From: Promethearchaeota archaeon
GTDB taxonomy: Archaea > Asgardarchaeota > Lokiarchaeia > Sigynarchaeales > SOKP01
Length of the DNA stretch: 20,705 nt
Assembly (NCBI GenBank): GCA_030605085.1
Contig: JAUWBH010000110.1
Span: 1-20,705 of the forward strand
Direction: 5' to 3'
A program made the translations under genes and the position numbers. The notes under the pieces are model-generated. The model was given only the letters and a program-made list of their open reading frames with translations. It had not been told where the DNA came from and made no database searches. How positions within the stretch are numbered: the stretch's first letter is position 1; each line of letters begins with the position of its first letter. Shown here in pieces: positions 3,057-20,705 of this stretch.

Positions 3057-3650
3057 TTAATTCTGTTTAAACTTATCATATAATTTCCTAATTAACGCTC
3101 TAAAAGCGTCAGTTACGCCCTCTCCTGTTAAAGCACTCGTTAAATAGTATCCATCAAAATCATGCTTTTTCTTAAGTATATCTACATTAACATTCGATGT
3201 AGGTTTGTCTTTGTTATTTAGTAATTCTTTATCGATCAGATCAATTTTGTTACCAAATAAGACTATTGGAATCTTTTTTACATTTTTTGTAATATCTTTA
3301 TACCACATACTGATATTTTCAAAACTCTCTTCACCGAGTTTATTATCTTCATGAGAAAACACAATTATCGCAGCTTTGCTTCCCTTATAGAAACTTTGGC
3401 GTAGTTTTTTAAATGTATCTTGTCCTGCAATATCCCACATAAACAATTCACAAGGTACTCCATCTATTTCTTCTGTAAATTTAGTAAATTGTGCGCCTAA
3501 GGTCATTATATAATCCTTATTAAACTCCCCTTTTGTGAATCGTTGAATGAGGCTTGTTATTGGCGTTTACTGCAAATGGCGGTAAACTTTACCTACAGCC
3601 CCATCACCGACAACTGTGATTTTGAAAACGAATCCTGCGCTCATCCTCAT
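3057..3650 (-). CDS. Ras/Rab-like small GTPase, frame interrupted by a 30-nt insertion in the P-loop
   Basis: The N-terminal part (ATG at 3650 or, with AGGTG five bases ahead, 3644) reads FKITVVGDGAVGK. After 30 extra bases with an in-frame TAA, the frame resumes as TSLIQRFTKGEFNKDYIMTL. Joined, this is a perfect G1 motif GDGAVGKTS. The remainder has TLGAQFTKF (switch I region), WDIAGQDTF (G3), GNKIDLID (G4) and TSALTGEG (G5), giving a joined protein of 187 residues, the usual size. It would hydrolyse GTP and act as a molecular switch in the Asgard GTPase network. The 149-residue frame starting at the internal Met (3506) lacks the P-loop and is unlikely to be a working product. It lies just downstream of the 1578-residue coiled-coil gene on the same strand. 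Confidence 0.85.
3558..3587 (-). other. 30-nt hairpin insertion in the GTPase P-loop
   Basis: This segment lies between the codons for Gly-Lys and Thr-Ser of the P-loop. On the coding strand it starts GTTTACCGC, has a 5-base loop CATTT, and continues GCAGTAAAC. That is a 9-position stem with one C-A mismatch, starting exactly at the 5' junction and leaving a 7-base 3' tail. Translation would give seven codons including TAA. The boundary is certain to within one base. That it is an insertion follows from the GTPase family motif. Confidence 0.8.
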
Positions 3651-3694
3651 CACCTATGATAATAACTTAATTTTTTCAATTGAATTTTAATTAA

Positions 3695-3702
3695 TTTATA
3701 AA
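3695..3702 (-). promoter_or_regulatory. Probable TATA box of the small GTPase gene
   Basis: TTTATAAA lies about 45 bases upstream of the GTPase start, which would put initiation about 20 bases before the ATG. Location and composition fit an archaeal TATA element, but the surroundings are AT-rich, so this is tentative. Confidence 0.35.
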
Positions 3703-3744
3703 CATTCAAATAATGTTTTACGATTTTTAATAATTATTTTAAAA

Positions 3745-3756
3745 GTCAATATTGAC
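3745..3756. promoter_or_regulatory. 12-bp perfect palindrome upstream of the GTPase gene
   Basis: GTCAATATTGAC is a perfect palindrome, 95-105 bases upstream of the GTPase start and about 75 bases after the stop of the coiled-coil gene. It could be an operator for a dimeric regulator. It recalls the GTCAATAAAA arm of the inverted repeat at 16170-16198, sharing GTCAAT. Function is unproven. Confidence 0.3.
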
Positions 3757-3829
3757 ATTATATTTAATTACTTAAAAGTAAAAATAAAAATAAAATGTAA
3801 GATTTTTGTTTTAAAATTTTTTTTAAAGC

Positions 3830-6800
3830 TCAATTTTCATTGATTCTGTCCAATTTCTCTTTCACTTTTACACCAATACTAGCAAGTTTAGTAATCATCT
3901 TGCTATCGCCTTTTATAGCGTTCAGATTAACATTTTCGCGATTAGACTTGATGCTTTCCTCTAGCATCTTTATAAGTTCCAATATTATTGCCAATACATC
4001 TTCTATCTTTTTCCTCTTAAGAGATTTTTTTGCTTCTTTCGCCAATCTCTTTCTAAGAGCACTTTCTTCCTTACGTGCCCTTCTCGCCTCTTTTGCCAAC
4101 CTCTTTCTACGTGCTTTTTCCTCTCTACGTGCCCTTCTCGCCTCTTTTGCCAACTTCTTTCTACGCGCTTTTTCCTCTCTATATGCTTGTTTAGCCGCTC
4201 GTGCCTCAGCTTTCTTTCTTGCTTTTCTTTCCCTAATCTCTTTCTTTATGTCTTTGATAATACCAAAATACTTGTCTACTAAATCGTTTCTGTTAATGAA
4301 ATTAGCAATCCTTATGATTTTCCAGCAATCGCTAATAGCTTTTTTAAATTTCTCGTTTTCTCGGTTAATTCTAACGTTTTCCTTTAGATTCGCGATTTGT
4401 TCCATTATATCTTCGTATTTCTCTTCCACCTTTTTCCATTTAAGAAGTTTTTTCAATTTTTTCGCCAATCTCTTTAGAAGTGCTTTTTCTTCTTTACGCT
4501 CTCTCTTCTTCTCTTTTGCTAATCTCTTTAGAAGTGCTTTTTCCTCTTTGCGCTCTCTCTTCTTTTCTTTTGCTAATCTCTTTAGAAGTGCTTTTTCCTC
4601 TTTAAGAGCCTTTTTTGTAGCTCGCGCTTCAGCTTTTTCTCTTGCCTTTGCCTCTTTACGAGCCTTTTTAGCATCTCTTTTCATTTGATTTCTACGAGCT
4701 TTTCTTTCTTTAATCTCCTGTTTAATCTCCATAATAACTCCATAGTATTTTTCTAACAAATCTTTTTCATTGATTAAATAGGCAAGTTTTATAATATTCC
4801 AGCAGTCCTTTGTTGCAGCTTTAAACTCTTCGTTCTCGCGATTAGTCCTAACGCTTTTCTCTAATCTTGATAAGTGTTCCATTATTAACGCGCGTTTCTC
4901 TTCTGCTCTTTTCGTTTTTAGAAGCATTTTCAGTTCCTTCGCTAGCATCTTGTTGCGGGCTATTTCTTCCTTACGAGCTATTATCGCCTCTCTTGCTAAT
5001 CGTTTTTGACGTGCTTTTTCTTCCTTACGAGCTCTTTTCGCCTCTCTTGCTAATTGTTTTTTAAGTGCTTTTTCTTCCTTTCGAGCTATTTTCGCCTCTT
5101 TTGCCAATCTCTTTTTGCGTGCTATTTCTTCTTTAAGTGCCTTTTTAGCAGCCTCCGCCTCTGCTTTTTCTCGTGCTTTTTCTTCTTTACGAGCTTCTTT
5201 AGCTTCTCTTTTCAATTGTTTTTGACGGGCTTTTGTTTCCTTCGTCTCCTGCTTAATCTCTTTAATAATAGCATAATATTTTTCTACTAAATCTCTTTCG
5301 CCAATCAGATAAGCAAGTCTAATAATTCTCCAACACTCTCTAATAGCAGTTCTAAATTTATTATTTTCGCGATTTTTCTTTACGCTGTTCTCTAATTCCG
5401 CTATTTGCTCTACTATAATTCCGCGTTTCTCATCAGAAATTTCCATTTTGCGAGCTTTTCTCTCTTCTTTTGCCAACCGCTTTTGAAGTGCTTTTTCTTC
5501 CTTACGAGCTCTTTTCGACTCTCTTGCTAATTGTTTCTTAAGTGCTATTTCTTCTTTAAGCGCTTGTTCCGCTTCTCTTGCCAACCTCTTTCTATGTGCT
5601 TTTTCCTCTTTACGAGCTTTTTTAGCTTCTTGTGCATCTGCTTTCTTTTTAGCTTTTCGGTCTTTAATTTCTTTCTTAGTTTCTTTAATAATATCGAAAT
5701 ATTTTTCTGCTATATCATTTTCGTTGACATAATAAGCAAATCTGACAATATTCCAACAATCACCTATAACAGCTTTAAAATCTTCATTTTCGCGATTCGA
5801 TTTGACAGTTTCTTCCAACCACGCGATTTGTTCCATTATTATATTGTACATTACTTCCGTTTTTTTCTCTTTTAAAGCAGCTGTAGCTTTTTTAGCTATT
5901 AATTTTTTAACTGCTTTCTCTGCTTTAAGAACTCTTTCCTCTTCTATAGTTCTTGCTTTTTCGAACTCTTCTTTTGCTTTGATCGCTTTTCTCTCCCTTT
6001 TTGCTAATTGCTTGTAAAGTGCTATTTCCTCTTTACGTGCCTTTTTTGCTTCTTTTGCCAACCGCTTTTTAAGTGCTATTTCCTCTTTGAGAGCTTTTCT
6101 CGCCGCTCGTACTTCTTCTTTTTCTCGAGCTTTTTCCTCTTTAGTTTTTGCCTTTTCTAGCGCTTTTCTTTCCCTTAGCTCTTTTTTCGTCTCTTTTAAA
6201 ACACCAAAATATTTTTCTACTAAATCCTTTTCGTTAAGAAAATAAGCAAGCCTGAATATTTTCCAGCAATCCCTTATAACTTCTTTCAATTCGTCGTTTT
6301 CACGATGGATATTAACATCTTCCTCTAATTTTGCTAGTTGTTCAAGTAATAAAGCTCGTTTCTCTTCCGCTATTTCCATTTTAAGAGCTTTTCTCTCTAT
6401 CCTTGCCAATTTCTTTTTAAGTGTTTCTTCTTCCTTACGAGCTTTTTCAGCTGCTCTCGCTTCTTCCTTTTCTCGCACTTTTTTCTCTTTTTGCGCTATT
6501 TTCGCAGCTCTCGCTTCTTCTTTTTTGCGAACTTTTCGGTCTTTAATTTCTTTTTTAATGTCCTGAATAACACCAAAATATTTATCAACCAAATCCTTTT
6601 CGTTGATAAAATAACCTAAACTGATGATCTCCCAGTAATCGCTAATAGCTTCTCTAAAATTTTCTTTTTCTCGGTTTAATCTAACGCTTTCTTCTAATTT
6701 CGCTACTTGCTCCATTATTTCTTCTCGTTTCATTTCCACTTTTTTCCTTTTTCGAGCTTTTTTCGCTTCCCGTGCTTTTACTTTTTCTTCTGCTATTTGC

Positions 6801-8566
6801 TTATTAAGAGCTTCTTTCGCTTCTAAAGCTTCTCGCTTTTTAAGTGCTTTTCCCTCTCTCTTAGTTTCTCGCGCTTTTAATTTATCTTCCGCTTTTTGCC
6901 TCTTAAGTGCTATTTTCGCTTCAAAAGCCTTTCGCCTTTTAAGTGCTTTTCCATCTTTTTTCGCTTCCCGAGCTTTGACCTTATCTTCTGCTTTTTGCTT
7001 CTTAAGTGCTATTTTCGCTTCCCGTGTTTTTATTTTACTTTCAGCCTTTTGCTTCTTAAGATCTTCTTTCGCTTCCAATGCTTCCTTCTTTGTAAGTGCT
7101 TTTCCATCTTTTTTAGCTTCCCGAGCTTTAACCTTATCTTCCGCTTTTTGCTTCTTAAGTGCTATTTTCGCTTCACGTGTTCTTACTTTATCTTCAGCTT
7201 TTTGTTTCTTAAGAGATATCTTTGCTTCCCTTGTTTTTACTTTATCTTCAGCTTTTTGTTTCTTAAGAGCTATCTTTGCTTCCCGTGCTTTTAGTTTTAC
7301 TTCTTGTTCGTCTTCCTTAAGAGTCATTTCCGCTTCTAATGCTTCTTTCTTTTTAAGTGCTTTTGCTCTTTTTAGTGCTCTTTTACCGGTTAACGCCTGG
7401 GCTTTTTTATCTGCTTCTTGCTGCTTAAGAGCTTCCTTCGCTTCTAAAGCTTCTTGCTTCTTTAGTTCTTTTTCCTTTATTCTTGCTTCCCGTGCTTTCA
7501 TTTTATCTTCCGCCTTTTTCTTCTTAAGATCTTCTTTTGCTTTTAAAGCTTCTGCCTTTTCTTGAGCTCTTTTTGCTTGTAATGCCTTTTCTTTCTCTAA
7601 ACCTTTTAATATCTCTTCTGTTTTTTGCTTTTCTAACGCTTTTTTCGCTTCTAAAGCTTTTAATTTCTCTTCTGTTTTCTTCTCTTTTAGATCTTTTTTC
7701 TCTTTTTTAGAGACTGCTTTTTCAATCATTTTTTGTGCTTCTAGAATCCTTTTCTCTTCTTCTGTTATTTCTTTTTCATGGATTCTTTTCGCTTCTAATG
7801 CCCTTTGTTCTTCCAAAGCTTTTTCTCTTTCTAAAGCTCTTTTCTCTTTAAGTGCTTCTTTCTCTGCTAAAGATAATTCATTTTCACGAGCCCTTCTTTC
7901 TTCGATTTCTTTTTTAATATCTTCTAAGAGCCCACTATATTTCTTGACTAAATCTTTTCTTCTGATTTGACCTGCAATTTTAGTTATTTTTTCGCTGTCA
8001 TCTATAATCGACTTTAAATCGTTATATTTACGATTTATTTTAATTTTATCTTCTAATTTTTCTATTTGTTCCATTCCCTTACCGTATTTCTTTTGGGCAC
8101 TTAAAATTTCTTTTTTAGCATCGCTTAATATCTGATCAAAATACTCATCTTTCTTTTTTTGAACAATCGGTTTCATTTCGTCGATTTTCGAGATTGCCTC
8201 TTCGAATTTAAGATTTAATCTAAGTCTAGAACTCTCTGCTAACGCATCTTCAATCTTCTCTACCGTCGCCTCATCTAATCTCTCCTCCGTAAAGAAGAAT
8301 TTGTAATCATAACGCTTTTGAACACCACCAATTACATCGCAACTACTGACAATAATATTCTTGTAAGAATTACGCCAAGAGCTTAGCTCTTCCGAAAATC
8401 CCGCAGTCTTGATTCTTTTTGTAGAATTAATCCTTTCCACATTTATTACCGTTTGTATTTTAAAGACTTTTTCAAAATGTTTCAAGAGAAACTCTTTAAT
8501 TTCTTCTTCTCTACCCTTAAATTTCTTCTTGTATTTTGAAAAAACATCTTCAATCTGCTGACTCAT
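3830..8566 (-). CDS. 1578-residue helical repeat / coiled-coil protein
   Basis: The protein is extremely rich in Lys, Ala, Glu, Arg and Leu. Residues 1-160 form a less biased domain (VFKIQTVINVERI, SSCDVIGGVQKRYDYKFFF). A ~55-residue helical unit then occurs eight times, beginning near residues 164, 617, 740, 909, 1050, 1228, 1387 and 1525. Its consensus is MEQIAxLEESVxxNRENExF, then DCWxIIRLAYxINEKDLVEK, then YFGxIKEIKKEI. The last copy is degraded. Between units run 60-400 residues of repeated ALEAKKALKKQKAEDKVKAR-type sequence, as expected for long single alpha helices or coiled coils. There are no membrane segments or signal peptide. A cytosolic spacer or scaffold is likely, perhaps cytoskeletal. 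The unit may be a small helical hairpin that binds a partner. I do not recognise a named family. ATG start at 8566. Confidence 0.85.
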   Translation of the reverse strand: MSQQIEDVFSKYKKKFKGREEEIKEFLLKHFEKVFKIQTVINVERINSTKRIKTAGFSEELSSWRNSYKNIIVSSCDVIGGVQKRYDYKFFFTEERLDEATVEKIEDALAESSRLRLNLKFEEAISKIDEMKPIVQKKKDEYFDQILSDAKKEILSAQKKYGKGMEQIEKLEDKIKINRKYNDLKSIIDDSEKITKIAGQIRRKDLVKKYSGLLEDIKKEIEERRARENELSLAEKEALKEKRALEREKALEEQRALEAKRIHEKEITEEEKRILEAQKMIEKAVSKKEKKDLKEKKTEEKLKALEAKKALEKQKTEEILKGLEKEKALQAKRAQEKAEALKAKEDLKKKKAEDKMKAREARIKEKELKKQEALEAKEALKQQEADKKAQALTGKRALKRAKALKKKEALEAEMTLKEDEQEVKLKAREAKIALKKQKAEDKVKTREAKISLKKQKAEDKVRTREAKIALKKQKAEDKVKAREAKKDGKALTKKEALEAKEDLKKQKAESKIKTREAKIALKKQKAEDKVKAREAKKDGKALKRRKAFEAKIALKRQKAEDKLKARETKREGKALKKREALEAKEALNKQIAEEKVKAREAKKARKRKKVEMKREEIMEQVAKLEESVRLNREKENFREAISDYWEIISLGYFINEKDLVDKYFGVIQDIKKEIKDRKVRKKEEARAAKIAQKEKKVREKEEARAAEKARKEEETLKKKLARIERKALKMEIAEEKRALLLEQLAKLEEDVNIHRENDELKEVIRDCWKIFRLAYFLNEKDLVEKYFGVLKETKKELRERKALEKAKTKEEKAREKEEVRAARKALKEEIALKKRLAKEAKKARKEEIALYKQLAKRERKAIKAKEEFEKARTIEEERVLKAEKAVKKLIAKKATAALKEKKTEVMYNIIMEQIAWLEETVKSNRENEDFKAVIGDCWNIVRFAYYVNENDIAEKYFDIIKETKKEIKDRKAKKKADAQEAKKARKEEKAHRKRLAREAEQALKEEIALKKQLARESKRARKEEKALQKRLAKEERKARKMEISDEKRGIIVEQIAELENSVKKNRENNKFRTAIRECWRIIRLAYLIGERDLVEKYYAIIKEIKQETKETKARQKQLKREAKEARKEEKAREKAEAEAAKKALKEEIARKKRLAKEAKIARKEEKALKKQLAREAKRARKEEKARQKRLAREAIIARKEEIARNKMLAKELKMLLKTKRAEEKRALIMEHLSRLEKSVRTNRENEEFKAATKDCWNIIKLAYLINEKDLLEKYYGVIMEIKQEIKERKARRNQMKRDAKKARKEAKAREKAEARATKKALKEEKALLKRLAKEKKRERKEEKALLKRLAKEKKRERKEEKALLKRLAKKLKKLLKWKKVEEKYEDIMEQIANLKENVRINRENEKFKKAISDCWKIIRIANFINRNDLVDKYFGIIKDIKKEIRERKARKKAEARAAKQAYREEKARRKKLAKEARRARREEKARRKRLAKEARRARKEESALRKRLAKEAKKSLKRKKIEDVLAIILELIKMLEESIKSNRENVNLNAIKGDSKMITKLASIGVKVKEKLDRINEN
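4467..4603 (-). repeat. 54-nt tandem repeat, about 2.5 copies, inside the coiled-coil gene
   Basis: Units at 4467-4520 and 4521-4574, with a partial third to 4603, are nearly identical in DNA and encode RKEEKALLKRLAKEKKRE. The near-identity shows recent expansion of the charged helix by unequal recombination or slippage. Confidence 0.85.
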
Positions 8567-8749
8567 AATTATGACACAAATATCTGTTTTTATATATAAT
8601 TATCCCTTTTTTGTATAAGTAATAACAGTATTATATTTTTATAATTACCCAAAAACAAGATGCAATTAATTAATATAACTTCTAGGATTTTGAAGCATAA
8701 ATAAAATGTCACACTGAAATAGAAAAAATGTTTTATAACAATAATTTGT

Positions 8750-9084
8750 TTATCCAAATACAGGTAGAAAATTGATTCCTTCTCCACCTAAAAGAATATA
8801 GAAACCATAGGTTATCGCAAATAAGGCGCCGATGATATTAATTGTTCTAAACAAACTTTTATGATTTGATTTTAATTTAGGCATTTTCAATATGCTCCCT
8901 AATAAAAGCATTCCAACCATTACACATAAGGAAAAAATTATTAGCCCTATACCCAATTATTCCAGAGATAAGATTTTTTTCATCCAATTAGGCATGATAA
9001 ATCCTATGTAATATAATAAACTTGACACCATTAGTATTACTTTTATAATAACTAAAGTTATCGGAGTTAATTCAATCAGCGCAT
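8750..9084 (-). pseudogene. Small multi-spanning membrane protein, broken by a frameshift and a stop
   Basis: From an ATG at 9084 the frame stops at once (ATG CGC TGA). The neighbouring frame reads LIELTPITLVIIKVILMVSS and then LLYYIGFIMPNWMKKILSLE up to TAA at 8959-8957. The same frame continues directly after the stop from a TTG: LGIGLIIFSLCVMVGMLLLG, then a loop, then TINIIGALFAITYGFYILLG to the stop at 8750. Joined, it would be a ~110-residue protein with about three membrane helices. The C-terminal 68 residues alone could be translated from the TTG at 8956. I do not recognise the family. Either the gene is decaying, or there are two tiny genes, or there are sequence errors. Confidence 0.45.
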
Positions 9085-9285
9085 CTCAACAGTCCGTATT
9101 TTATTAAAAGCAATAAAGTACTTTTTCTAATAAGTATTCATTATATTTTTTCGGATTTATCTATTAAAACAAAGAATTTTAAATTAGGTATTATTTTAAA
9201 TAATTAATAACTTAGACAAAATTTATACCCATAAATAGTTCTACAGCATAATTCATCAAAGTATAATTATAAGGGGTTAAGAGCA

Positions 9286-9486
9286 ATGCAAAATAGTTAT
9301 AAAATTTCAATACCTAAAGATTTATACGAAAAACTAGAAAAATTATCTGAATTATTAAAGATATCAATTCAAGAAATTGTGCAACTCGCAATTAAAGAAT
9401 TGTTTGATTTGATTAAAAACGATTCTGAAATTTTTCTTGAAAGATTAGGGATCATAAAAAACCTGAAAGAAATAGTAAAGACTTAA
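9286..9486 (+). CDS. Small RHH-like protein
   Basis: A 66-residue protein opens NSYKISIPKDLYEKLEKLSE and continues ISIQEIVQLAIKELFDLIKN. A short strand followed by two helices is the ribbon-helix-helix pattern of CopG/Arc-type DNA-binding dimers. Its Shine-Dalgarno-like AAGGGG lies 9 bases before the ATG. The tail (FLERLGIIKNLKEIVKT) is helical and may contact a partner. No toxin gene is next to it. It is probably a transcription regulator, or an orphan antitoxin. Confidence 0.6.
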   Translation: MQNSYKISIPKDLYEKLEKLSELLKISIQEIVQLAIKELFDLIKNDSEIFLERLGIIKNLKEIVKT

Positions 9487-9538
9487 TATTAAATAAATCT
9501 ATATTTATTTTTCTTGTTTTATTGATGCAATTAAAGAT

Positions 9539-9865
9539 TTAGAGATTCAATGCTTGCGTTAAAATTCTTCTTTTTCTTGTATTTTTGTGTATCACCTGAG
9601 AAATGAATTTTTCTATATCGACTTTTTTTTGTGTCATAATTTTATAGATTTTTAGGCGAGTTGAACTATGCTCCTCTAAAATTCCCGTTTTTTCGAGATA
9701 TTTTAGCGATCTCCATATGAAATTTATTTTAGAATGATTAGAAGAATGTATATTATTAATTTGTCTAATTTTTTTTGTGGTAACTATGTTAATGTTCTTC
9801 TCTATCATTTTATTGATAGCTTCAAGAACCTCTTTCAAATTTTCTACAAAAAAATCCAAATTCAA
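9539..9865 (-). CDS. Probable winged-helix-like regulator, 108 residues
   Basis: The start ATG at 9865 follows AAGGGATATTGA, a good ribosome site. Residues 40-85 (INNIHSSNHSKINFIWRSLK, YLEKTGILEEH, RLKIYKIM) resemble a winged helix: a recognition helix, then a 'leucine-rich end of helix, Gly, beta hairpin' pattern. The N-terminal 35 residues form a helix (NLKEVLEAINKMIEKNINIV). It is basic overall. A small archaeal transcription regulator is the best guess. I know no close family. It is convergent with the RHH-like gene on its left. Confidence 0.5.
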   Translation of the reverse strand: MNLDFFVENLKEVLEAINKMIEKNINIVTTKKIRQINNIHSSNHSKINFIWRSLKYLEKTGILEEHSSTRLKIYKIMTQKKVDIEKFISQVIHKNTRKRRILTQALNL

Positions 9866-13892: not shown

Positions 13893-14150
13893 TTATTTCT
13901 TATTCTTATCGTCCTCAAATTTGAAAGATTCAAATAATTCCAGATTTAATTTTTTTGCTAAATCGAACCCCGTATCAAAGAACAGTTTTATAGATTTATA
14001 AAAAAGATCGCTTAACAAATTATCTACATTTGAATCTTCATTTAATTCCGAAAACATCTTTTTCGCATCATTTTTTTGCTCTTCCACTTTTCTTTTTAAT
14101 TCTGGGAGCTCTTCCAAATCTGGACTCTGATTATTTTCTATAAAATTCAC
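13893..14150 (-). CDS. Small acidic/helical protein downstream of the acyltransferase
   Basis: An 85-residue charged protein with two predicted helices (LEELPELKRKVEEQKNDAKK and LLSDLFYKSIKLFFDTGFDL) and a charged tail EDDKNKK. The first codon is taken as GTG at 14150, but it overlaps the ribosome-site-like GAGGTG, so the true start could be a few codons later. It follows the acyltransferase stop by 26 bases and is probably co-transcribed. The amphipathic helix around KSIKLFFDTGFDLAKKL could lie on a membrane surface. I do not recognise the family. Confidence 0.5.
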   Translation of the reverse strand: MNFIENNQSPDLEELPELKRKVEEQKNDAKKMFSELNEDSNVDNLLSDLFYKSIKLFFDTGFDLAKKLNLELFESFKFEDDKNKK

Positions 14151-14176
14151 CTCTCTTTTTTCTAATTTAAATTCAT

Positions 14177-14878
14177 TTATAATTCTTCTTCAATTTCAGG
14201 TCTTTTTCTAAGAGTATCAATAATATTAATTAAGTCTGCTGCAAGCTCGTATCTCTGCGGTCGATATTTGTCTCGATTCAACTTTTTATCAATCTTAAGT
14301 GGATTTCCAACTTTAACTCTAAAACCGCTTATAGGAATTAAATCGAACAACTTTGTTTTTTCAGTGTATACCGCCAACGGAACAATTGGGGCTTGTCCCG
14401 CGATGGCAAATTTGATTATTCCCGCCATCGATTTTACTTGAATTTCATGGTCAAAACGCGCCTCTGGAGTCATTCCTACAAGGTCGCCTTTTTTATTTAA
14501 TATTTCAAAAATCTTATCTATCGGCTCGGTGTCTTCCTTGCTCTCGGTTCCACGAATCATCCCCAGACTTTTAAGGAGTGGTCCCGCAATTTGATGCTTC
14601 ATGATTTTTGGATGGAGCATGAAATGTATTTTTCTCCCCGTTAACTGGCTTATAATAGCCATATCTAAGAAAACATTCTTGCTAATCGTTGTTAGAATTG
14701 CTTTTCCTCTAAGAGGGATGTTTTCAGCTCCTTCTATTTTCAAATCAGTAAACATTTTTAACGCCGCTCCACTAATTCCTTTAACGCTCATATATAAAAG
14801 ATCTCCCATAAGCTCTTTTTTACTCAATCTGGGTTTCTCTTCTTCTTCCTCTTCTAAAACAGGTGTACTTTCAACCAT
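14177..14878 (-). CDS. PlsC-like acyltransferase with an altered catalytic motif
   Basis: The 233-residue protein has the layout of 1-acyl-glycerol-3-phosphate acyltransferases: LKIEGAENIPLRGKAILTT leading to motif I, then a GxxR-type region (KSLGMIRGTES), motif III GMTPEARFD (the family has FPEGTRS), and motif IV APIVPLAVY. Motif I should be NHxxxxD, but here it is SKNVFLD, with Lys where the catalytic His should be. The protein may therefore be inactive, use different chemistry, or serve as a binding protein. There is no transmembrane anchor. The N-terminus is acidic (EEEEEEKPRLSKKE). The start ATG has GGAGGT eight bases ahead. The promoter region is a near-identical copy of the one before the activase gene, so the two may be co-regulated in acyl-chain metabolism. 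Confidence 0.75.
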   Translation of the reverse strand: MVESTPVLEEEEEEKPRLSKKELMGDLLYMSVKGISGAALKMFTDLKIEGAENIPLRGKAILTTISKNVFLDMAIISQLTGRKIHFMLHPKIMKHQIAGPLLKSLGMIRGTESKEDTEPIDKIFEILNKKGDLVGMTPEARFDHEIQVKSMAGIIKFAIAGQAPIVPLAVYTEKTKLFDLIPISGFRVKVGNPLKIDKKLNRDKYRPQRYELAADLINIIDTLRKRPEIEEEL

Positions 14879-14932
14879 TTTTTTATACCTCCAATTATAT
14901 TTTATAATTTGTAAATAAATTCGTTTACTTTC

Positions 14933-15043
14933 GAGGTTTTTTATATATTAGCTCTATAATTTTATCTTAATTATATTCTCTAAATAAAGCGGATTTATAT
15001 AAAAAGATCTTCAATAAAACAACATTCTCAAAAGTATGAAATT
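14933..15043 (-). repeat. 111-bp direct repeat, copy A (promoter of the acyltransferase)
   Basis: It matches 18999-19109 at 108 of 111 positions without gaps. Both copies lie immediately upstream of a gene on the minus strand (acyltransferase here, activase there). It contains TTTATATAAA at 14994-15003, a good archaeal TATA element. The transcript would start within the repeat and carry a shared leader. Confidence 0.9.
14994..15003 (-). promoter_or_regulatory. TATA element in repeat copy A
   Basis: TTTATATAAA, preceded on the minus strand by GATCTT, lies ~116 bases before the acyltransferase ATG. The same element at the same offset occurs in copy B. Its conservation in a duplicated promoter makes it more credible than other AT-rich matches. 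Confidence 0.55.
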
Positions 15044-15116
15044 AGTATTTTTTGTATTTGTTGCTTATAAAGAGTTTCAGATAGAGAATAAAAAAAAGAA
15101 AGAAAAATTTTCTTGG

Positions 15117-15323
15117 TCAATTATTTAGTTTCTTAAGATTAATACCAATTTCGTTGGTAATAATTTGCCTTTCCTCTTCTGTTATATTTAGACTATATCT
15201 CTCTCTAGTGATTTTAGTCCAAAGATAATGCAAAAATCTACCCTGTTTTTCGTTTAATCTCGGAAACTCTGTAAATAATTCTCCGTATTTCGCATCGGGG
15301 TGGTGGTTTAAAAAAGAAAGCAT
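15117..15323 (-). CDS. Unknown small helical protein, 68 residues
   Basis: A 68-residue protein opens MLSFLNHHPDAKYGELFTEF and continues with helices (LNEKQGRFLHYLWTKITRER; TEEERQIITNEIGINLKKL). The mix of helices and conserved-looking aromatic residues suggests a real small DNA- or protein-binding domain, but I cannot name it. It starts at an ATG only 15 bases from the start of the divergent gene at 15339, so both would need overlapping promoters, or be leaderless, if both starts are right. Confidence 0.5.
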   Translation of the reverse strand: MLSFLNHHPDAKYGELFTEFPRLNEKQGRFLHYLWTKITRERYSLNITEEERQIITNEIGINLKKLNN

Positions 15324-15338
15324 TTATACTGAGATATT

Positions 15339-15695
15339 TTGATATACGAAAAAGTATTGGAAGATAAAAAATATCTAAATTTAGCTATCTATGGCGTTTG
15401 GCGTTCTAAAGAGCCAGACTTAACATTAATATTAACTATTTTAAAAAATGATAGAAACCTATTTGAACTGGACAAGAATAATGTTATTATATATGTCAAC
15501 GGAGACGAAAAGAAAATAATTCCTTATTTCAAAAAAATTATTAAATTATATTTCAGAGAGTTTGTTCAAAAAACTCTCAAGGAAGTTGTCTATTTAACTA
15601 GTGGTAAATATCCTATATCTGAAAAAGAATTCATTAATAAATATTCTTATATTATAGAAGGAATTAATAAAGAAATGACGAAGAAATTGAGATAA
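15339..15695 (+). CDS. Unknown protein, 118 residues
   Basis: It opens at TTG (MIYEKVLEDKKYLNLAIYGV) with no clear ribosome site. It has strands (LTLILTILKN, NNVIIYVNGDEK) followed by basic helices (IIPYFKKIIKLYFREFVQKT; EFINKYSYIIEGINKEMTKK). The composition is AT-driven, with many Lys, Ile and Asn. I do not recognise a family and see no catalytic motif. It is transcribed divergently from the 68-residue gene. It could be a roadblock-like or regulatory domain, but nothing in the sequence decides that. Confidence 0.5.
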   Translation: MIYEKVLEDKKYLNLAIYGVWRSKEPDLTLILTILKNDRNLFELDKNNVIIYVNGDEKKIIPYFKKIIKLYFREFVQKTLKEVVYLTSGKYPISEKEFINKYSYIIEGINKEMTKKLR

Positions 15696-15867
15696 AATGG
15701 TTTGATTCAAAAAATCCACTTTCGTACAATTTTTCACAAAAAAAATTAAAGATTAAATCTCTAAATTGAAAATCAATTGATTAAATAACATTGCCATTGA
15801 GAATTCTAAGACATCATTTATATTTAATTAAGTCTGAATCTGAAATTTTTAAATTTTAAGAAAAAGT

Positions 15868-16148
15868 TTACCCGAATTCAGCGCGTTTCCCGTGATGAGC
15901 AAAATACGCTTTCTCAGCTGCTGCAAGTATAGCTGCTCGATCGATTGGAGTATATCCCAGTCCGAGAAGCGATTTTATATCACATCGATTTGCTATATCG
16001 CAACAATGCAGAATATATTCAAATAGGTATTTAAGATATTCTGGTTTAAATTTTTTGTCTTTTAATTTCTGTATCTCCTTTTCTATCTCAGGAGTCTTTT
16101 CAAGAATTGAACTAAGTTCTTTTTCTGTTATTTTGATAATAAAAACAT
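15868..16148 (-). CDS. Unknown ~93-residue helical protein with a one-base shift just after its ATG
   Basis: A long open frame from 16140 down to TAA 15870-15868 reads IIKITEKELSSILEKTPEIE, then YLKYLFEYILHCCDIANRCD, then GLGYTPIDRAAILAAAEKAY and FAHHGKRAEFG. It has clear coding character but no start codon of its own. An ATG at 16148 lies one base out of frame, separated by a run of five T. Six T would give MFFIIKITEK. The cause may be a homopolymer sequencing error, slippage, or a start at ATT. The protein is all-helical with three Cys (HCCDIANRC). No family is recognised. It is divergent from the LRR gene. Confidence 0.6.
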
Positions 16149-16169
16149 TTTTAAGTCTAAAATGTTAGT

Positions 16170-16198
16170 TTTTATTGACAAAAAATTTGTCAATAAAA
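16170..16198. promoter_or_regulatory. 29-bp perfect inverted repeat between divergent genes
   Basis: TTTTATTGACAAA and its exact reverse complement flank an AAA centre. It sits in the 96-base gap between the 15868 gene and the LRR gene. It could be an operator for a dimeric regulator, or an RNA hairpin. Its size is close to the ~30-nt hairpin insertions elsewhere in the window. Confidence 0.6.
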
Positions 16199-16212
16199 CG
16201 CGCTTAGGCGCG
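16199..16212 (+). promoter_or_regulatory. GC-rich hairpin upstream of the LRR gene
   Basis: CGCGC-TTAG-GCGCG is a perfect 5-bp stem with a 4-base loop, directly abutting the larger inverted repeat. It stands out in AT-rich surroundings. It lies 33 bases before the LRR start, in the likely 5' leader, followed by an A run. Confidence 0.5.
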
Positions 16213-16244
16213 AAAAAGGAAACAAATAAGAGGATAAGTAAACG

Positions 16245-17234
16245 ATGAGCAAAAAAATCAAGTTAAAGCCGAAAGAAGCTAAGGTTTTAGAGGAATTGGA
16301 AAAAATAATTGGCAAGCCTATTCCACAGGTGGATGAAATTTATTTGAACACATTCGGAGTTAAAGCCGATGGCGATAATGTCGTAGGAATAGGACTATAT
16401 AATTGCGGGTTAACGACTCTCCCAGAGTCAATAGGCGATCTTAAATCGCTTGAAACACTATTGTTAAAGACAAATCAGTTAACGACTCTCCCAGAGTCAA
16501 TAACCAAGCTAGAATCACTTGACTACCTAAATTTGGATGAGAATAAGTTATCGACTCTCTCAGAGTCAATATCGAACCTTAAATCACTCACATACCTTAA
16601 TTTGAATAGTAATAAGTTATCGACTCTCCCAGAGTCGATAGGGAACCTCTCCTCGCTCAAAGAACTAGATTTAAGATGGAATCAGTTATCGACTCTCCCA
16701 GAGTCCATAGGAAACCTTACATCGCTCCAAGACCTAAATTTAAAGAGTAACAAGTTATCGACTCTCCCAGAGTCAATATCGAACCTTAAATCACTCACAT
16801 ACCTTAATTTGAATAATAATAAGTTATCGACTCTCCCAGAGTCGATAGGGAACCTCTCCTCACTCAAAGAACTAGATTTAACGAATAATGAGTTAACGAC
16901 TCTCCCAGAGTCAATAGGCAATCTTAAATCTCTCCAAACACTATGGGTAAATAAAAATCAATTATCGACTCTCCCAGAGTCCATAGTAAACCTTAAATCG
17001 CTTACATACCTAGGTTTGGGTGGTAATAAGTTTACGACTTTCCCAGAGTCAATAGGAAACCTTTCCTCGCTCGAAGACTTATATTTATATGAGAATCAGT
17101 TAACGACTCTCCCAGAGTCGATAGCTACTATAACTTCATTAAATTATTTAAACATCGAAAATAATCCATTGGATTCAAAAGCTAAATCCGTGGTAAAGCA
17201 ATTGAAAAAGAATGGAGTTAATATTTATACATGA
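16245..17234 (+). CDS. Leucine-rich-repeat protein, 11 repeats
   Basis: The 329-residue protein has an N-terminal cap of about 45 residues ([20 protein letters not shown]), then 11 tandem 23-residue LRRs of the form [20 protein letters not shown], then a cap ([20 protein letters not shown]). This is the plant/small-GTPase-associated 'PS-type' or ROCO-like LRR found in Asgard and other genomes. It forms a solenoid for protein binding. There is no signal peptide or membrane segment, so it is probably cytosolic; partners could be small GTPases. Repeats 3-4 and 6-7 are almost identical, showing internal duplication. AGAGGAT lies about 10 bases before the ATG. The LPES codons are nearly invariant at DNA level (see the repeat entry). 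Confidence 0.9.
16414..17119 (+). repeat. Eleven copies of a 16-nt palindromic core at 69-nt spacing in the LRR gene
   Basis: CGACTCTCCCAGAGTC occurs at 16414, 16483 and onward every 69 bases to 17104. Nine copies are identical and two differ by one base. It is an inverted repeat (GACTCT-CCC-AGAGTC), extended to 8 bp where the flanks are TCGA. It encodes the TLPES part of each repeat. Neighbouring codons vary between repeats, while this core hardly does. Confidence 0.9.
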
Positions 17235-17356
17235 AATTTATCTTCTCCTTGATTTTTTTCTAAAGTTAGAAAGTACATAAAATTTCAAGGAAACCTTAAT
17301 TAGTTTTAGAACTTATGGTAGAATACCTTTGAAAAAAATAAATTAAAAGGTGTTAA

Positions 17357-17663
17357 ATGAAAATGCAAATTGAATTTGTACACAATTTATTAGATGAAGT
17401 AAGGCACTTGTGTGCCGAAGAAGGGCTTGCCCCTTCCACCACCTTAAAAAAAATCCGTTATTTGGAAAAATTTTTTTAAGGGGATACAGGATGTTTCCGT
17501 AAGGGAAATTACTGAATGGATCAATTCTTATGGGAGCGAACGAACGGGCAGAATGTTAGGACCTCACGGTAAGAATAATTATGTTATTGCCATATCGATC
17601 GACGACGACAACGAAGTAAATATGTCATATTTAGATTTTTTGAAATTTGCTGCATTCTATTAA
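17357..17663 (+). pseudogene. Unknown ~101-residue protein with a one-base shift at a T run
   Basis: The ATG at 17357 follows AAGGTG by four bases. The frame reads MKMQIEFVHNLLDEVRHLCA, then EEGLAPSTTLKKIRYLEKFF, and stops at TAA after seven T. One T fewer gives EKFFKGIQDVSVREITEWIN and then GRMLGPHGKNNYVIAISIDD up to TAA at 17661-17663. The two halves clearly belong together. A homopolymer error is the simplest reading. Slippage by RNA polymerase or ribosome at A5T7 is an alternative, and recent loss is another. Domain unknown. The 17401-17440 stretch is unusually GC-rich with two small hairpins (GGCAC/GTGCC; GAAGGG/CCCTTC). Confidence 0.55.
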
Positions 17664-17711
17664 TAAATCATAATATAGATTTTGCTTTGAATTTAGTTCA
17701 ATTGAGAATAT

Positions 17712-17915
17712 TTAAAGGGAAATGATGAACTTATTTACTTCTTCCATTCGTTTCTCGTAATATTCTTTAAGGTCTTTCTCAGAAACAAACGACGGAATAA
17801 CCTTTTCCGAATATATATCGAATAATGTGGATAGTTTTGTTCTAAATTTTAATGTGTCGTAAAATTCTTTACCTAAATCAAAAATTTCACTTAATTTTTT
17901 CAAAAATTCGGACAC
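17712..17915 (-). CDS. Small protein coupled to the activase gene, 67 residues
   Basis: I take the GTG at 17915 as start. It lies two bases after the activase stop and has GGAGGT (17925-17930) nine bases ahead, inside the end of the activase gene, so translation is coupled. The protein begins VSEFLKKLSEIFDLGKEFYD and ends YYEKRMEEVNKFIISL, all helical and charged. An ATG 18 bases further upstream would overlap the activase end and is less likely. The family is unknown. Its position suggests a role with the acyl-CoA dehydratase activase. Confidence 0.6.
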   Translation of the reverse strand: MSEFLKKLSEIFDLGKEFYDTLKFRTKLSTLFDIYSEKVIPSFVSEKDLKEYYEKRMEEVNKFIISL

Positions 17916-17917
17916 TT

Positions 17918-18971
17918 TTAAAATACCTCCCATTTACCACATCGACTTCCCCAGCGGGCTATTACCTTGTTTCCTTCTTCAGGCATGCGTACCTGAATTA
18001 TCTCACAGTTGTTAGGGCAATCACCACATGAAAAAGCAGATGTTACAAACTCAATTTCAGATACTTCAAGACCCCTGAACAAGGTTTCAGTTTCGTGATT
18101 AATGTAATGATCTCGCACGAGAATAGCCATCCCAAGCGCTCCCATTAAAACATTGTGATTTGGTACAACAATCTTGTAGCCGAGATGCCGTTCAAAGGCT
18201 TGCACAATACCTTTATTGAACGAAACTCCACCTTGGAACACTATAGGTTCTTCCAAATCCTTTCCCTTCGAAAGATTATTTAAATAATTCCTAACTAACG
18301 AATCACACAGTCCAGCAATTATATCCTCACGGGAATAACCCGCATTTTGTTTATGAATCATGTCTGATTCGGCAAATACAGTACATCTTCCCGCAATGGA
18401 TACAGGATTCGTAGATTTTATCGCATAGTCTCCAAAGTCTTCAATTGGAATACCAAGTCTCGAAGCTTGATGATCAAGGAAGGAACCCGTTCCTGCCGCG
18501 CAGACTGAATTCATCGCAAAGTCAACTATGATTCCATCTCTGAGAAGAATTATTTTCGAATCTTGACCTCCAATTTCTAAAATAGTTCTTACATCAGGAT
18601 ATTCAGATTGTGCCCCTACTGCATGGGCAATTATTTCAGTTTTCGCAAGGTCTCCTCCAACCACTGCCTTGGTTAAATATCTTGCAGATCCCGTGGTGCC
18701 GCAAGCGCGTATCGCAAAATCTTTTAAATCCTTGTTTGCATTTATTTTTTCCCTCAATTCTGACATTCCTTCCTTGACAGAATCAATAGGAGAGCCCTCG
18801 TTTCTCAAAAACACCGATGTGAGAACATTACCATCCATATCCATAAAAACGAATTTTAGACTGACTAATCCAACTGATCTAATTGATTCAATTGTCTGAT
18901 CCTACATCGATGCCCAAAAAAGCGTCCTTTTTGTTATCGCTTTTTAAAACTTTATCTTTAACTTGTACCAT
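17918..18971 (-). CDS. 2-hydroxyacyl-CoA dehydratase activase (ATPase), interrupted by a 31-nt insertion
   Basis: From the ATG at 18971 the frame reads 25 residues to FLGIDVGS. After 31 extra bases it resumes VSLKFVFMDMDGNVLTSVFL to the stop at 17918; joined length is 340 residues. It is an actin-fold ATPase of the HgdC/BcrAD-type activase family. Visible motifs are phosphate-1 GIDVGSVSLK, RACGTTGSAR, ILEIGGQDSK, NSVCAAGTGSFLDHQ and SIAGRCTVFAESDMIH (Cys ligands for the [4Fe-4S] shared by the dimer), plus FQGGVSFN. A C-terminal Cys-rich end (CGDCPNNCEI, WGSRCGKW) is typical of the longer archaeal versions. It would inject electrons into a 2-hydroxyacyl-CoA dehydratase at the cost of ATP. GC content is higher than in the neighbours. 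The promoter is in repeat copy B. Confidence 0.9.
18866..18896 (-). other. 31-nt insertion in the activase phosphate-binding loop
   Basis: It lies between the codons for GIDVGS and VSLK. The length of 31 is set by family spacing GIDVGS-x-x-x-K; an alternative 22-nt reading, bounded by a direct repeat GATCAG, leaves three extra residues. It shifts the frame and brings TGA and TAG. On the coding strand CAATTG (18894-18889) pairs with CAGTTG (18876-18871) around a 12-base loop, followed by a 5-base tail. The inner part includes the palindrome AATTGAATCAATT. Confidence 0.75.
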
Positions 18972-18998
18972 ACTTAAATAATCCCTTTATCTTGTTTG

Positions 18999-19109
18999 GA
19001 GGTTTTTAATATATTAGCTCTATAATTTTATCTTAATTATATTCTCTAAATAAAGTGGATTTATATAAAAAGATCTTCAAAAAAACAACATTCTCAAAAG
19101 TATGAAATT
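18999..19109 (-). repeat. 111-bp direct repeat, copy B (promoter of the activase)
   Basis: This is the partner of 14933-15043, with three substitutions and no gaps. It ends 28 bases before the activase ATG. The TATA element TTTATATAAA is at 19060-19069, about 90 bases before the start. It could have been copied to place both genes under one control. Confidence 0.9.
19060..19069 (-). promoter_or_regulatory. TATA element in repeat copy B
   Basis: TTTATATAAA is conserved with copy A. It is the likely TATA box of the activase operon, giving a leader of roughly 60 bases. Confidence 0.55.
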
Positions 19110-19229
19110 TATATCTTCACATTTGATAATTACTTTCTTTATTAATTGATGGTTAAAGTGATCTTCTAACCACTCGTTAATCTCTGCCTCAATTCTGTAT
19201 TTTCTAATAAGATATAAGTAAATAAAAAC
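19077..19229 (-). other. Possible gene fragment running into repeat copy B
   Basis: An open frame without ATG, GTG or TTG start reads YLIRKYRIEAEINEWLEDHF and then NHQLIKKVIIKCEDINFILL, ending at TGA inside the repeat. The first part has coding character; the last ~10 residues are encoded by the repeat. It may be a gene truncated when the repeat arrived, or chance. Confidence 0.25.
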
Positions 19230-19828
19230 TAGTCTAAAAGTGTCTTTATTTCATCAAAGGTAATTTCTAAAATATCATCATCTTCGGATCTAAAGATATG
19301 TTTCAATATGCTAATTGTAATTTTAATATCTTCGGCAAAAATGATTGTTTTTAATACTTCAAGATTAAATTTTTTATGAATTTTTTCCCAGATAACAAAA
19401 TAATCGCTATGTCCTGATTCAACATAATCAATACCACATAATTCACATAAGACTTTTTCTAAATAATGTATTAAACCCTCGCTTAACCATTTTCTTATTG
19501 AAATCTTCCCCTTTGTAATAGATTTAGAATGGAGTATTTCTGCTAACAATAGACTAAAATCAAACTTAGCTTCATTTTTTATATAAATTTTTTCATCTTT
19601 CCACTTAAACAATCCTGGAATAATTTCACATAGAAATTTATAACGTTCTTTAGTGAATTCAATGTCTTGATAACTCTCTGAACTTAACTTATAATTATCT
19701 TTGATACATTTATAAAATTCATAATTATTAACATAAAGAATAGGTGTATCACTAACATCTAAATTTAAATGTTCTCTAATACAAGTAAGAACTCTATTCT
19801 TAGATTGTTTATAATAAGATTCAGTCAT
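19229..19828 (-). CDS. Unknown protein with a degenerate metallopeptidase-like motif, 199 residues
   Basis: The middle carries LLLAEILHSKSITKGK followed 8 residues later by WLSEGLIHYLEKVLCELCG. This resembles the gluzincin arrangement HExxH...WLxEG..xY of M1-type peptidases. Here the first His of HExxH is Ala (AEILH), while the second His, the downstream Glu (SEGL) and the Tyr remain. If the relation is real, zinc binding is compromised and the protein would be a pseudo-enzyme. The N-terminal third is mixed alpha/beta (TPILYVNNYEFYKCIKDNYK); the C-terminus is helical and acidic. Cys residues (LCELCGID) could bind metal. It lies 22 bases after the 77-residue gene, in the same operon. ATG start with no strong ribosome site. 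Confidence 0.55.
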   Translation of the reverse strand: MTESYYKQSKNRVLTCIREHLNLDVSDTPILYVNNYEFYKCIKDNYKLSSESYQDIEFTKERYKFLCEIIPGLFKWKDEKIYIKNEAKFDFSLLLAEILHSKSITKGKISIRKWLSEGLIHYLEKVLCELCGIDYVESGHSDYFVIWEKIHKKFNLEVLKTIIFAEDIKITISILKHIFRSEDDDILEITFDEIKTLLD

Positions 19829-19850
19829 CTTAAGAGGCCCTAAAGAGATA

Positions 19851-20084
19851 TTATAATGATCTTAAAATGCTGACTAGTTTATCTGGGCAATTTTTCTTTA
19901 TGAACTCTTTATTATCCTTTAAAAATTTATCAAATTTAACTAAAAGTTCAATTTTCTTTTCATGTGTGCTGGTATCTTGTAAAATTTCAGAAAATTTTGA
20001 GAGTTCCTTGACTATATTCTCTCTTTTAGATTCTAATTCTTCTTCTTTTTCTTTATTATCTTCAATAGAAGATTCAATTTTCAT
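19851..20084 (-). CDS. Small charged coiled-coil protein, 77 residues
   Basis: It begins MKIESSIEDNKEKEEELESK and continues ENIVKELSKFSEILQDTSTH and KFLKDNKEFIKKNCPDKLVS. The first 45 residues are a strongly charged helix; the rest is a short helical segment ending ILRSL. No family is recognised. It precedes the 199-residue gene by 22 bases and is probably co-transcribed, so the two products may interact. The 20085-20270 stretch upstream is AT-rich without a gene. Confidence 0.5.
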   Translation of the reverse strand: MKIESSIEDNKEKEEELESKRENIVKELSKFSEILQDTSTHEKKIELLVKFDKFLKDNKEFIKKNCPDKLVSILRSL

Positions 20085-20270
20085 AATTAATCACAATTAA
20101 GATTTAATTCTAATATATAAAAAATAATTCAAAAATTTGTATTTTATTCTTTTAAAAAAAATTTTAAATTAGAATCAAAAAAGTATCTATAACTAATTAA
20201 TCTGAATCAATGCATTATATATATGAATACATTACTCCAATCAAGGTGAGAATAAATTAATAAATTATAA

Positions 20271-20705
20271 TTATTTTGATTCAATTAAATTTAGGCATTC
20301 TTTACCAAAATTATTTACCGTATAATTGTATAAGTCCTTTTTAATAGTCTCTACTGAGAGTTGTCTATCTTTAATTTCTTTGTCCCGTCTTGCTTGTATA
20401 AGGTCTAAAAAAGCTTCGAGACGCGTTCGAAATCCCGCCTCTGCTGCTTGCTCATCAAATGAGAAGAAAATCACGGGCAAATCATATTTCCTTTTGAGAG
20501 CATTATTAATAATCGTTCGGGCAGTGACCTCAGGCATGCACGTAAACGGATAGCTATGACAAAACCCCTGAAGATTTCTCTTAGCCGCATCAATATATTC
20601 CCCTATGACCCAGATGCATTTGATGATGCGTTTGAAATAGACGCATCATTCTCCGCCTATGTCCATAGGGATCCAGGGGCGTGCGAGGTGCTCAAGCCAC
20701 TTCCG
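20271..20705 (-). CDS. 2-hydroxyacyl-CoA dehydratase-type subunit, C-terminal part, interrupted by a 30-nt insertion
   Basis: The gene enters from beyond the right edge. It reads RKWLEHLARPWIPMDIGGE (20705-20649), then a 30-base insertion with TGA, then CIWVIGEYIDAAKRNLQGFC and HSYPFTCMPEVTARTIINNA. It continues LPVIFFSFDEQAAEAGFRTR and LEAFLDLIQARR to the stop at 20271. The PFTCMPE and FDEQ..AG..TRLEAF motifs are typical of the COG3580/COG3581-type dehydratase/activase-associated proteins, where the Cys binds a [4Fe-4S] cluster. The family spacing GE-xxxx-IG-(17)-PFTCMP is restored exactly when the insertion is removed. The ATG at 20537 is the Met of CMPE, not a true start. It likely works with the activase downstream. 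GC is far higher than in the rest of the window. Confidence 0.8.
20619..20648 (-). other. 30-nt hairpin insertion in the dehydratase subunit
   Basis: On the coding strand it starts TGATGCGT, has a 9-base loop, and closes with ACGCATCA. This is a perfect 8-bp stem (20648-20641 with 20631-20624) starting exactly at the 5' junction, followed by a 5-base tail TCAAA. An AATG direct repeat makes the exact boundary ambiguous by four bases. It brings an in-frame TGA directly after GGE. Confidence 0.8.

What the first reader, a model, noticed from the sequence alone, without database searches (positions are those of the whole stretch)
3558..20648. Three ~30-nt hairpin interruptions inside conserved motifs: a possible family of micro-introns, bypass elements or mini mobile elements
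Seen: segments of 30, 31 and 30 nt (3558-3587, 18866-18896, 20619-20648) split three unrelated genes that are otherwise intact. Each brings stops or shifts the frame; each can fold into a hairpin; in two, the stem starts exactly at the 5' junction; each leaves a 5-7 base 3' tail. The bases before the junctions are GGTAAA, GGATCA and GGAGAA (GG...A in all). The sites are the most conserved points of each protein (P-loop GK|T, actin-fold GIDVGS|, GGE|xxxxIG), as is usual for inteins and mobile introns. Known parallels are archaeal introns cut at bulge-helix-bulge motifs, the 50-nt ribosomal hop in T4 gene 60, and the 'byp' hairpins of Magnusiomyces mitochondria. None of these is known to me in Asgard archaea at this length. 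Inference: one shared mechanism removes or skips them, or one element type inserted recently.
Basis: partly seen in the sequence, partly recalled or inferred. Interest (0 to 1): 0.93.

Follow-up and report, generated by a model that had tools for sequence, protein, structure and literature searches.

The report
Tiny introns in Lokiarchaeal protein genes
Several ordinary protein genes of Lokiarchaea, close relatives of eukaryotes, are broken by hairpins of about 30 bases that look like tRNA-type introns which the cell must cut out of the messenger RNA, a kind of splicing so far reported for very few archaeal protein genes.

Summary
In detail: three frame-breaking hairpin inserts (30, 31, 30 nt) lie in a Ras-type GTPase, an activase and a dehydratase-like gene. 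Other Lokiarchaeota genomes show that they belong to a family: 25 inserts at 17 gene sites, all 29-32 nt (21 supported by protein homology, 4 by structure scan), in ArgG (7 genomes, one site), actin, gyrase B, Elp3, CdhD, TldD and others. They fit archaeal bulge-helix-bulge (BHB) introns. In the 21, all four central pairs form in 18 (mirrored geometry 3) and the best of 36 registers lies where homology puts the junction in 20; without the eight first noticed through the scan: 10 of 13 (mirror 2), 12 of 13. Introns in tRNA-Pro genes of this group have the same geometry (7 of 8; mirror 0) and nearly the same length. ArgG introns show compensatory changes, downstream exons are under purifying selection, and endonuclease genes are present. 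Bypass, inteins and assembly error fit worse. Splicing is inferred, not shown. The one confirmed archaeal mRNA intron named in the passages I read is cbf5. Window segment 3 is a weak BHB; its counterpart at the same site in another genome is perfect.

The parts
3559..3588 (-). BHB intron 1 (30 nt) in a Ras-family GTPase gene; in the BHB register it splits the Lys codon of the P-loop GKT (phase 2)
   Evidence: homology; BHB AGGT-AA^A-GTTTAC..GTAAAC-GCCA-AT^A, central 3 of 4 pairs, score 32, P=0.0002; mirrored score 26, P=0.0007; minimum-energy fold close to it
3589..3644 (-). exon 1 of the GTPase gene (ATG at 3644)
   Evidence: reading; spliced peptide
3057..3558 (-). exon 2 of the GTPase gene
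   Evidence: Pfam Ras match on 3057-3506
18865..18895 (-). BHB intron 2 (31 nt) in a BcrA/BadF-type activase gene, GIDVGS|VSLK (phase 1)
   Evidence: homology; GATC-AG^A-CAATTG..CAGTTG-GATT-AG^T, central 4 of 4, score 26, P=0.0008; mirror 11; fold
18896..18971 (-). exon 1 of the activase gene (ATG at 18971)
   Evidence: this stretch is uninterrupted in 51 of 53 related loci looked at
17918..18864 (-). exon 2 of the activase gene
   Evidence: Pfam BcrAD_BadFG on 17918-18844; 88% identical to L001
20619..20648 (-). intron 3 (30 nt) in a dehydratase-like gene, GGE|CIWVIGE; BHB with a weak central helix
   Evidence: 55 continuous homologous frames span the site; inner stem 7 bp, central helix only 2 of 4 pairs, score 26, mirror 24; the same site in G003 (L022/L023) has a perfect BHB
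20649..20705 (-). exon 1 of the dehydratase-like gene (runs off the window)
20271..20618 (-). exon 2 of the dehydratase-like gene

Best explanation
The segments are miniature bulge-helix-bulge introns in messenger RNA. In the transcript the end of exon 1 pairs with the 3' end of the intron (central helix, 4 bp), a 3-nt bulge lies on each strand beside it, and the intron closes in a hairpin. The archaeal tRNA-splicing endonuclease (EndA, here probably an alpha-beta type) would cut each bulge after its second base, and an RNA ligase (RtcB expected) would join the exons, restoring the reading frame. Shown by computation: existence, length class, geometry, junction register, compensatory change, purifying selection downstream, matching tRNA introns and EndA genes. 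Inferred: cutting, ligation, and translation of the joined mRNA.
For: 1) 21 homology-supported inserts: the best BHB of 36 registers falls in the homology-allowed junction in 20; central helix 4/4 in 18 against 3 for a mirrored geometry; at least 3 pairs in 20 against 6. ArgG of G001/G002 and the POR-type gene were first noticed through the BHB scan; without ArgG and POR: 12 of 13, 10 against 2, 12 against 4. 2) ArgG: insert at the same site in 7 of the 22 regions read; on six aligned introns 95.4% of 108 pair cells form (slid versions 20-60%), 3 pairs with changes on both sides. 3) Positive control: 8 of 9 tRNA-Pro genes found in loci of this group carry an insert (28-30 nt, one 37); central helix 4/4 in 7 of 8, mirror 0 of 8. 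4) Domain models run across the joined site in 9 of 10 spliced proteins (GyrB only by NCBIfam; in the tenth the domain starts at the junction). 5) dN/dS of exon 2 is 0.03-0.15 in the 6 usable of 18 comparisons. 6) EndA matches in 8 of 8 genomes, two paralogs in 6; one resembles 3p1z_B and keeps GPG-EH, the other has no His there. RtcB in 9 of 12. 7) Four further genes were first seen through the BHB scan and then recognised as Elp3, MoxR, GyrB and flavin reductase.
Against: No RNA data: splicing is not observed. Window intron 3 has only 2 of 4 central pairs, and its minimum-energy fold shows an internal loop there. The G005 activase insert scores weakly (P=0.088, best register outside the allowed set), and the G006 ArgG insert has no inner stem beside the central helix. 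Strong hairpins also score under the mirrored geometry (5 of 21 with P<=0.0015); mainly the central-helix count separates the two. A BHB motif scan alone is uninformative: 100447 canonical against 99685 mirrored motifs, 3736 against 3736 frame-restoring, 71 against 59 with coding signal on both sides. RtcB was not found in G001, G005 and G011. The covariation rests on six related sequences, one outer pair fails in five of six, and further pair types do not exceed shuffles (457 of 500). One of the eight tRNA-Pro inserts (L229) fits the mirrored geometry better. Profile models also bridge the unspliced insert, so they name the gene rather than prove the joint.
Confidence: 0.92

Rival explanations
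1. Translational bypass elements: the ribosome hops over the hairpin, as in T4 gene 60 or the yeast mitochondrial byps.
For: Length, hairpin and 3' tail resemble byps as recalled; in most inserts, including two of seven ArgG genes, a codon-boundary register is also compatible with homology. Reviews of bypassing, PMC8211752 and PMC5009743, were seen only in search listings.
Against: In five of seven ArgG genes the allowed registers are phases 1 and 2 only: the Asp codon of SGGLDTS is split. Take-off and landing triplets do not match fully in the cases I compared by eye (GAA/CTT in G003; GAT/AAT in G002 and G005). Bypass does not predict a 4-bp exon-intron helix between 3-nt bulges, nor the same elements in tRNA genes, which are not translated.
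Confidence: 0.04
2. Recent insertions of a small mobile hairpin element that inactivate genes (pseudogenes).
For: Presence varies even between sister genomes (G001 and G002); the ArgG tree needs 5 changes.
Against: No shared sequence seen between sites; same-site inserts in diverged species keep the fold with compensatory changes; downstream exons under purifying selection in the usable comparisons; affected genes include ArgG, gyrase B and actin.
Confidence: 0.02
3. Assembly or sequencing artefacts.
For: The named sources are metagenome-assembled genomes.
Against: Same-site inserts recur in separate MAGs (L002 AMARA_1S and L056 BC1; seven ArgG genes), several with different letters and the same fold; G010, with contigs up to 1.28 Mb, also has two by the scan.
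Confidence: 0.01
4. BHB-like structures cut by EndA for regulation or mRNA turnover rather than productive splicing.
For: [quoted passage not shown]
Against: Removal of the homology-derived length at the BHB cuts restores the reading frame in the 21 cases, with junctions in three phases.
Confidence: 0.01

Closest known systems
cbf5 pre-mRNA introns of Crenarchaeota (Yokobori 2009, PMC2738675, passages read; Watanabe 2002 seen only as cited there)
   Same: BHB introns in a protein-coding mRNA, cut between second and third bulge residue, small (36 bp in two Staphylothermus), boundary after the first letter of an Asp codon; the ArgG, G002/G005 activase and G002 aldolase introns here can also be placed after the first letter of an Asp codon; linked there to a hetero-oligomeric EndA.
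   Different: There one gene in crenarchaeal orders, with an 'unconventional BHB' in most cases; here many unrelated genes in Lokiarchaeota, length held to 29-32 nt, mostly a complete central helix.
tRNA BHB introns of Asgard archaea (PMC11291895, passages: 92-95% of tRNA genes of three Atabey-/Freyarchaeia genomes have introns)
   Same: Same kind of element; the tRNA-Pro introns found here are of nearly the same length as the mRNA ones.
   Different: Those are in tRNA; here in mRNA.
[quoted passage not shown]
   Same: EndA sites in an mRNA.
   Different: Untranslated region, not inside a coding frame.
Yeast mitochondrial byps and T4 gene 60 (recalled; listings only)
   Same: Short hairpin segments interrupting conserved genes.
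   Different: Bypassed by the ribosome; no BHB and no tRNA counterparts (recalled); codon boundary not kept in five of seven ArgG genes here.

Membership tests
Archaeal BHB (EndA) intron | 4-bp central helix between exon 1 end and intron 3' end | tested here: met
   4/4 in 18 of 21, at least 3/4 in 20 of 21 (mirror 3 and 6). Window: 3/4, 4/4 and 2/4, so not met for window segment 3
Archaeal BHB (EndA) intron | two 3-nt bulges cut after the second base; joined product in frame at the conserved site | tested here: met
   best BHB register homology-allowed in 20 of 21, G005 activase not; domain models cross the joined site in 9 of 10
Archaeal BHB (EndA) intron | flanking outer and inner helices of at least 2 bp | tested here: inconclusive
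   inner stem extent at least 4 in 20 of 21 (G006 ArgG 0); outer extent only 1 in W intron 2, G005 activase, G002 aldolase and G001 actin; extents tolerate mismatches
Archaeal BHB (EndA) intron | structure kept by compensatory change | tested here: met
   ArgG: 3 of 18 pairs with double change, 95.4% of cells paired; few and related sequences
Archaeal BHB (EndA) intron | splicing endonuclease in the organism | tested here: met
   PF01974 in 8 of 8 related genomes; the window's own genome is not held
Archaeal BHB (EndA) intron | RtcB ligase in the organism | tested here: inconclusive
   9 of 12 genomes (G028 only a fragment); not found in G001, G005, G011; incomplete MAGs possible
Archaeal BHB (EndA) intron | cleavage and ligation in vivo | not testable with these tools
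   needs RNA
Translational bypass element (byp, gene 60) | gap begins after a whole codon | tested here: not met
   five of seven ArgG genes allow only phases 1 and 2; G028 and G006 ArgG and most other inserts allow a codon boundary too
Translational bypass element (byp, gene 60) | matching take-off and landing codons (recalled) | tested here: not met
   by eye: GAA/CTT (G003), GAT/AAT (G002, G005), AAA/ATA (window 1); no full match, not every insert compared
Intein | in-frame protein domain | tested here: not met
   29-32 nt; stops or frame shift

The most novel reading that the evidence does not exclude
Lokiarchaeota run routine mRNA splicing of tens of protein genes per genome, including actin, Ras-type GTPases, gyrase and core metabolism, with the tRNA-splicing machinery and a standard ~30-nt BHB mini-intron that is gained and lost quickly between sister species: an intron-rich, spliceosome-free archaeal lineage among the relatives of eukaryotes.
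Probability: 0.8. Interest if true: 0.95.

Novelty: new variant of a known kind. Interest (0 to 1): 0.88.

Why it matters
[quoted passage not shown] If these inserts are spliced, mRNA introns are common in an Asgard lineage, gene calls there are systematically broken (actin, ArgG and Ras GTPase genes look like pseudogenes), and the gain, loss and cost of introns without a spliceosome can be studied in close relatives of eukaryotes.

Tried and rejected
Bypass: my first idea, because the triplet before each insert resembled the last triplet of the insert; given up when G003 showed no match and most ArgG genes split a codon. Known RNA families: Rfam gathering scan of the window gave 0 matches. 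Motif-only scan: canonical and mirrored counts are equal genome-wide, and with coding potential on both sides 71 against 59 (scores of 28 or more: 9 against 4) and 120 against 108. Many of the listed candidates look intergenic and I did not count them. Only Elp3, MoxR, GyrB and flavin reductase, with recognisable proteins across the joint, were added from the scans, so that part of the catalogue was picked by eye. In the loci fetched later: 11 canonical against 13 mirrored, of which two were new and taken. From the homology scans I left out, also by eye, gaps between neighbouring genes, repeats and antisense shadows. A first register test had a window-length fault and is replaced. dN/dS: of 18 comparisons, 7 had saturated dS, 4 no close homolog, 1 was its own duplicate; 6 were used, one of them with dS 2.5. 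G011 Ras with two stops shows isolated stops and no insert. Outside the class none of 15 strong ArgG matches had stops; I claim nothing beyond Lokiarchaeota. I did not build a covariance model; of families I searched across genomes only Ras (one genus, list cut), actin (83 genomes, list cut) and ArgG for inserts.
Full report
What was claimed. Three ~30-nt hairpin segments interrupt three genes of the window. All three are there. Two genes match Ras-family GTPases and BcrA/BadF activases in Pfam; the third is homologous to the frame beside the activase in related loci and is called dehydratase-like here from memory of such operons. The closest relatives of the activase are Lokiarchaeota MAGs, 88% and 87% identical. 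No whole genome is held for the window.

Relatives. I looked at the activase start in 53 of the 79 fetched loci: 51 are uninterrupted and two, L002 (AMARA_1S) and L056 (BC1), carry a 29-nt hairpin insert at GI|DVGS, 12 nt from the window's site in the BHB registers. These two inserts share position and length and differ by a compensatory pair in the stem (by eye). A scan that compares open frames with all loci, and asks for frame-breaking extra DNA, found more. At the window's third site G003 (ABR02) carries a quite different 30-nt sequence with its stem on the same axis. Further inserts lie in a DeoC-type aldolase, a Ras GTPase, another P-loop GTPase, TldD and CdhD of G002 and an unnamed gene of G004, and in ArgG, a POR-type subunit and actin.

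Geometry. By hand the inserts fit the archaeal BHB motif: a 4-nt helix between two 3-nt bulges (PMC7714728, PMC6379350; passages), cut between the second and third bulge residue (PMC2738675, passage). I tested this on the 21 homology-supported inserts. For each I took the registers that the protein alignments allow and scored the BHB there. The best of 36 registers lies in the allowed set in 20 of 21. All four central pairs form in 18, at least three in 20. With the bulges on the wrong side of the helix (same footprint) the figures are 3 and 6. Against random positions 19 of 21 have P<=0.0015, the others 0.008 (G006 ArgG) and 0.088 (G005 activase); the mirrored geometry reaches P<=0.0015 in 5. 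The 21 are not independent: they lie at 13 sites, and seven are ArgG. Nor is the choice wholly blind: ArgG of G001/G002 and the POR gene were first noticed in the BHB scans, which prompted the ArgG search. Without ArgG and POR the figures are 12 of 13 registers, 10 complete helices (mirror 2), 12 with three pairs or more (mirror 4). The junctions fall in all three codon phases.

Weak members. Window segment 3 pairs only 2 of 4 central positions, and its minimum-energy fold has an internal loop there; its partner in G003 at the same site scores highest of all. A relaxed motif, or an intron in decay, is possible for segment 3. Window segment 1 pairs 3 of 4. G006 ArgG lacks an inner stem beside the central helix.

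ArgG. A family search of 83 genomes of the class gave 30 strong ArgG matches, six with stops and about 30 nt too long; reading 22 of the 30 showed a seventh, in G006. All seven sit at YSGGL|DTS. Six align without gaps: 18 pairs, 95.4% of cells paired, three pairs and five cells changed on both sides (3 and 0 of 500 shuffles as high), slid versions 20-60% paired; the number of further pair types does not exceed shuffles, and one outer pair fails in five of six. The tool warns that related sequences can exceed shuffles. On a tree the intron needs five gains or losses. Across 227 genomes of the phylum there were 45 strong matches; the 15 outside the class had no stops.

Positive control. ARAGORN of 21 tRNAs in the fetched loci as intron-bearing (several type labels are doubtful). 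Nine tRNA-Pro genes were found by a seed pattern; eight have an insert of 28-30 nt (one 37) at several positions. The central helix is complete in 7 of 8, and in 0 of 8 in the mirrored geometry; L229 is the misfit. So the handedness I used, partly recalled, is right for this group. Four of these eight genomes (G001, G006, G010, G078) are among those with mRNA introns here.

Function kept. Domain models cross the joined site in nine of ten spliced proteins, though such models can also bridge the unspliced insert. Exon 2 evolves with dN/dS 0.03-0.15 in six usable comparisons of 18; in the window's genes dS is saturated, with dN 0.08 for the activase and 0.3 for the other two. Unspliced, these parts would not be made.

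Machinery. EndA-type matches are in 8 of 8 genomes, two paralogs in six. I read seven copies of one paralog and five of the other. The first resembles the chain 3p1z_B and keeps the GPG-EH stretch; in the second the position of the 1a79 His aligns to Ser, as expected for a structural subunit (role of the His recalled). That points to an alpha-beta enzyme, the type that PMC7714728 says accepts a broader range of BHB motifs. RtcB is in 9 of 12 genomes, not in G001, G005, G011.

Frequency. In about 0.54 Mb of G002 I hold nine introns (seven with homology, Elp3 and MoxR by scan), in 0.82 Mb of G001 three, in about 0.42 Mb of G010 two. Scaled, G002 would have some tens. This is rough, since for most genes no homolog was in hand.

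Known or new. BHB introns are known in tRNA, rRNA and cbf5 mRNA; PMC2738675 also mentions putative, unconfirmed ones in other archaeal genes, and PMC7714728 BHB sites in a 5' UTR. Seven searches of an open-access library without bioRxiv and with few subscription papers listed nothing on mRNA BHB introns in Asgard archaea; four of the lists were cut at 20 of 26, 61, 39 and 29 papers, and I read passages and one methods section, not whole papers. The kind is known; many-gene, fixed-size mRNA introns in Lokiarchaeota appear to be a new variant.

Noticed in passing
L173, L223-L225, L228-L231 (tRNA-Pro genes on the loci that hold ArgG): Eight of nine tRNA-Pro genes carry inserts of 28-37 nt at several positions in the gene; ARAGORN gives several of them other amino-acid labels.
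   Followed up: partly
window 3830-8566 (-): A 1578-residue protein made largely of Lys/Glu/Ala/Arg-rich repeats, probably coiled coil.
   Followed up: no
window 16245-17234 (+): Leucine-rich-repeat protein with very similar repeats.
   Followed up: no
G010:C10:653495-654577 and G011:C285:10679-11170: An actin-family match and a Ras gene, each with two in-frame stops and no clear excess length: decay, error or recoding (the actin one was not read).
   Followed up: partly
G001 actin (L174) and G002: The best G002 actin match is full length without stops, while G001 has the intron; the G002 activase, TldD, CdhD, aldolase and P-loop introns are absent from G001 frames: fast gain or loss between sisters.
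   Followed up: partly
5' bulges of the 21 homology-supported introns: AG^A is the 5' bulge in 12 of 21, 6 of these being ArgG; several junctions can be placed after the first letter of an Asp codon, as reported for cbf5.
   Followed up: no
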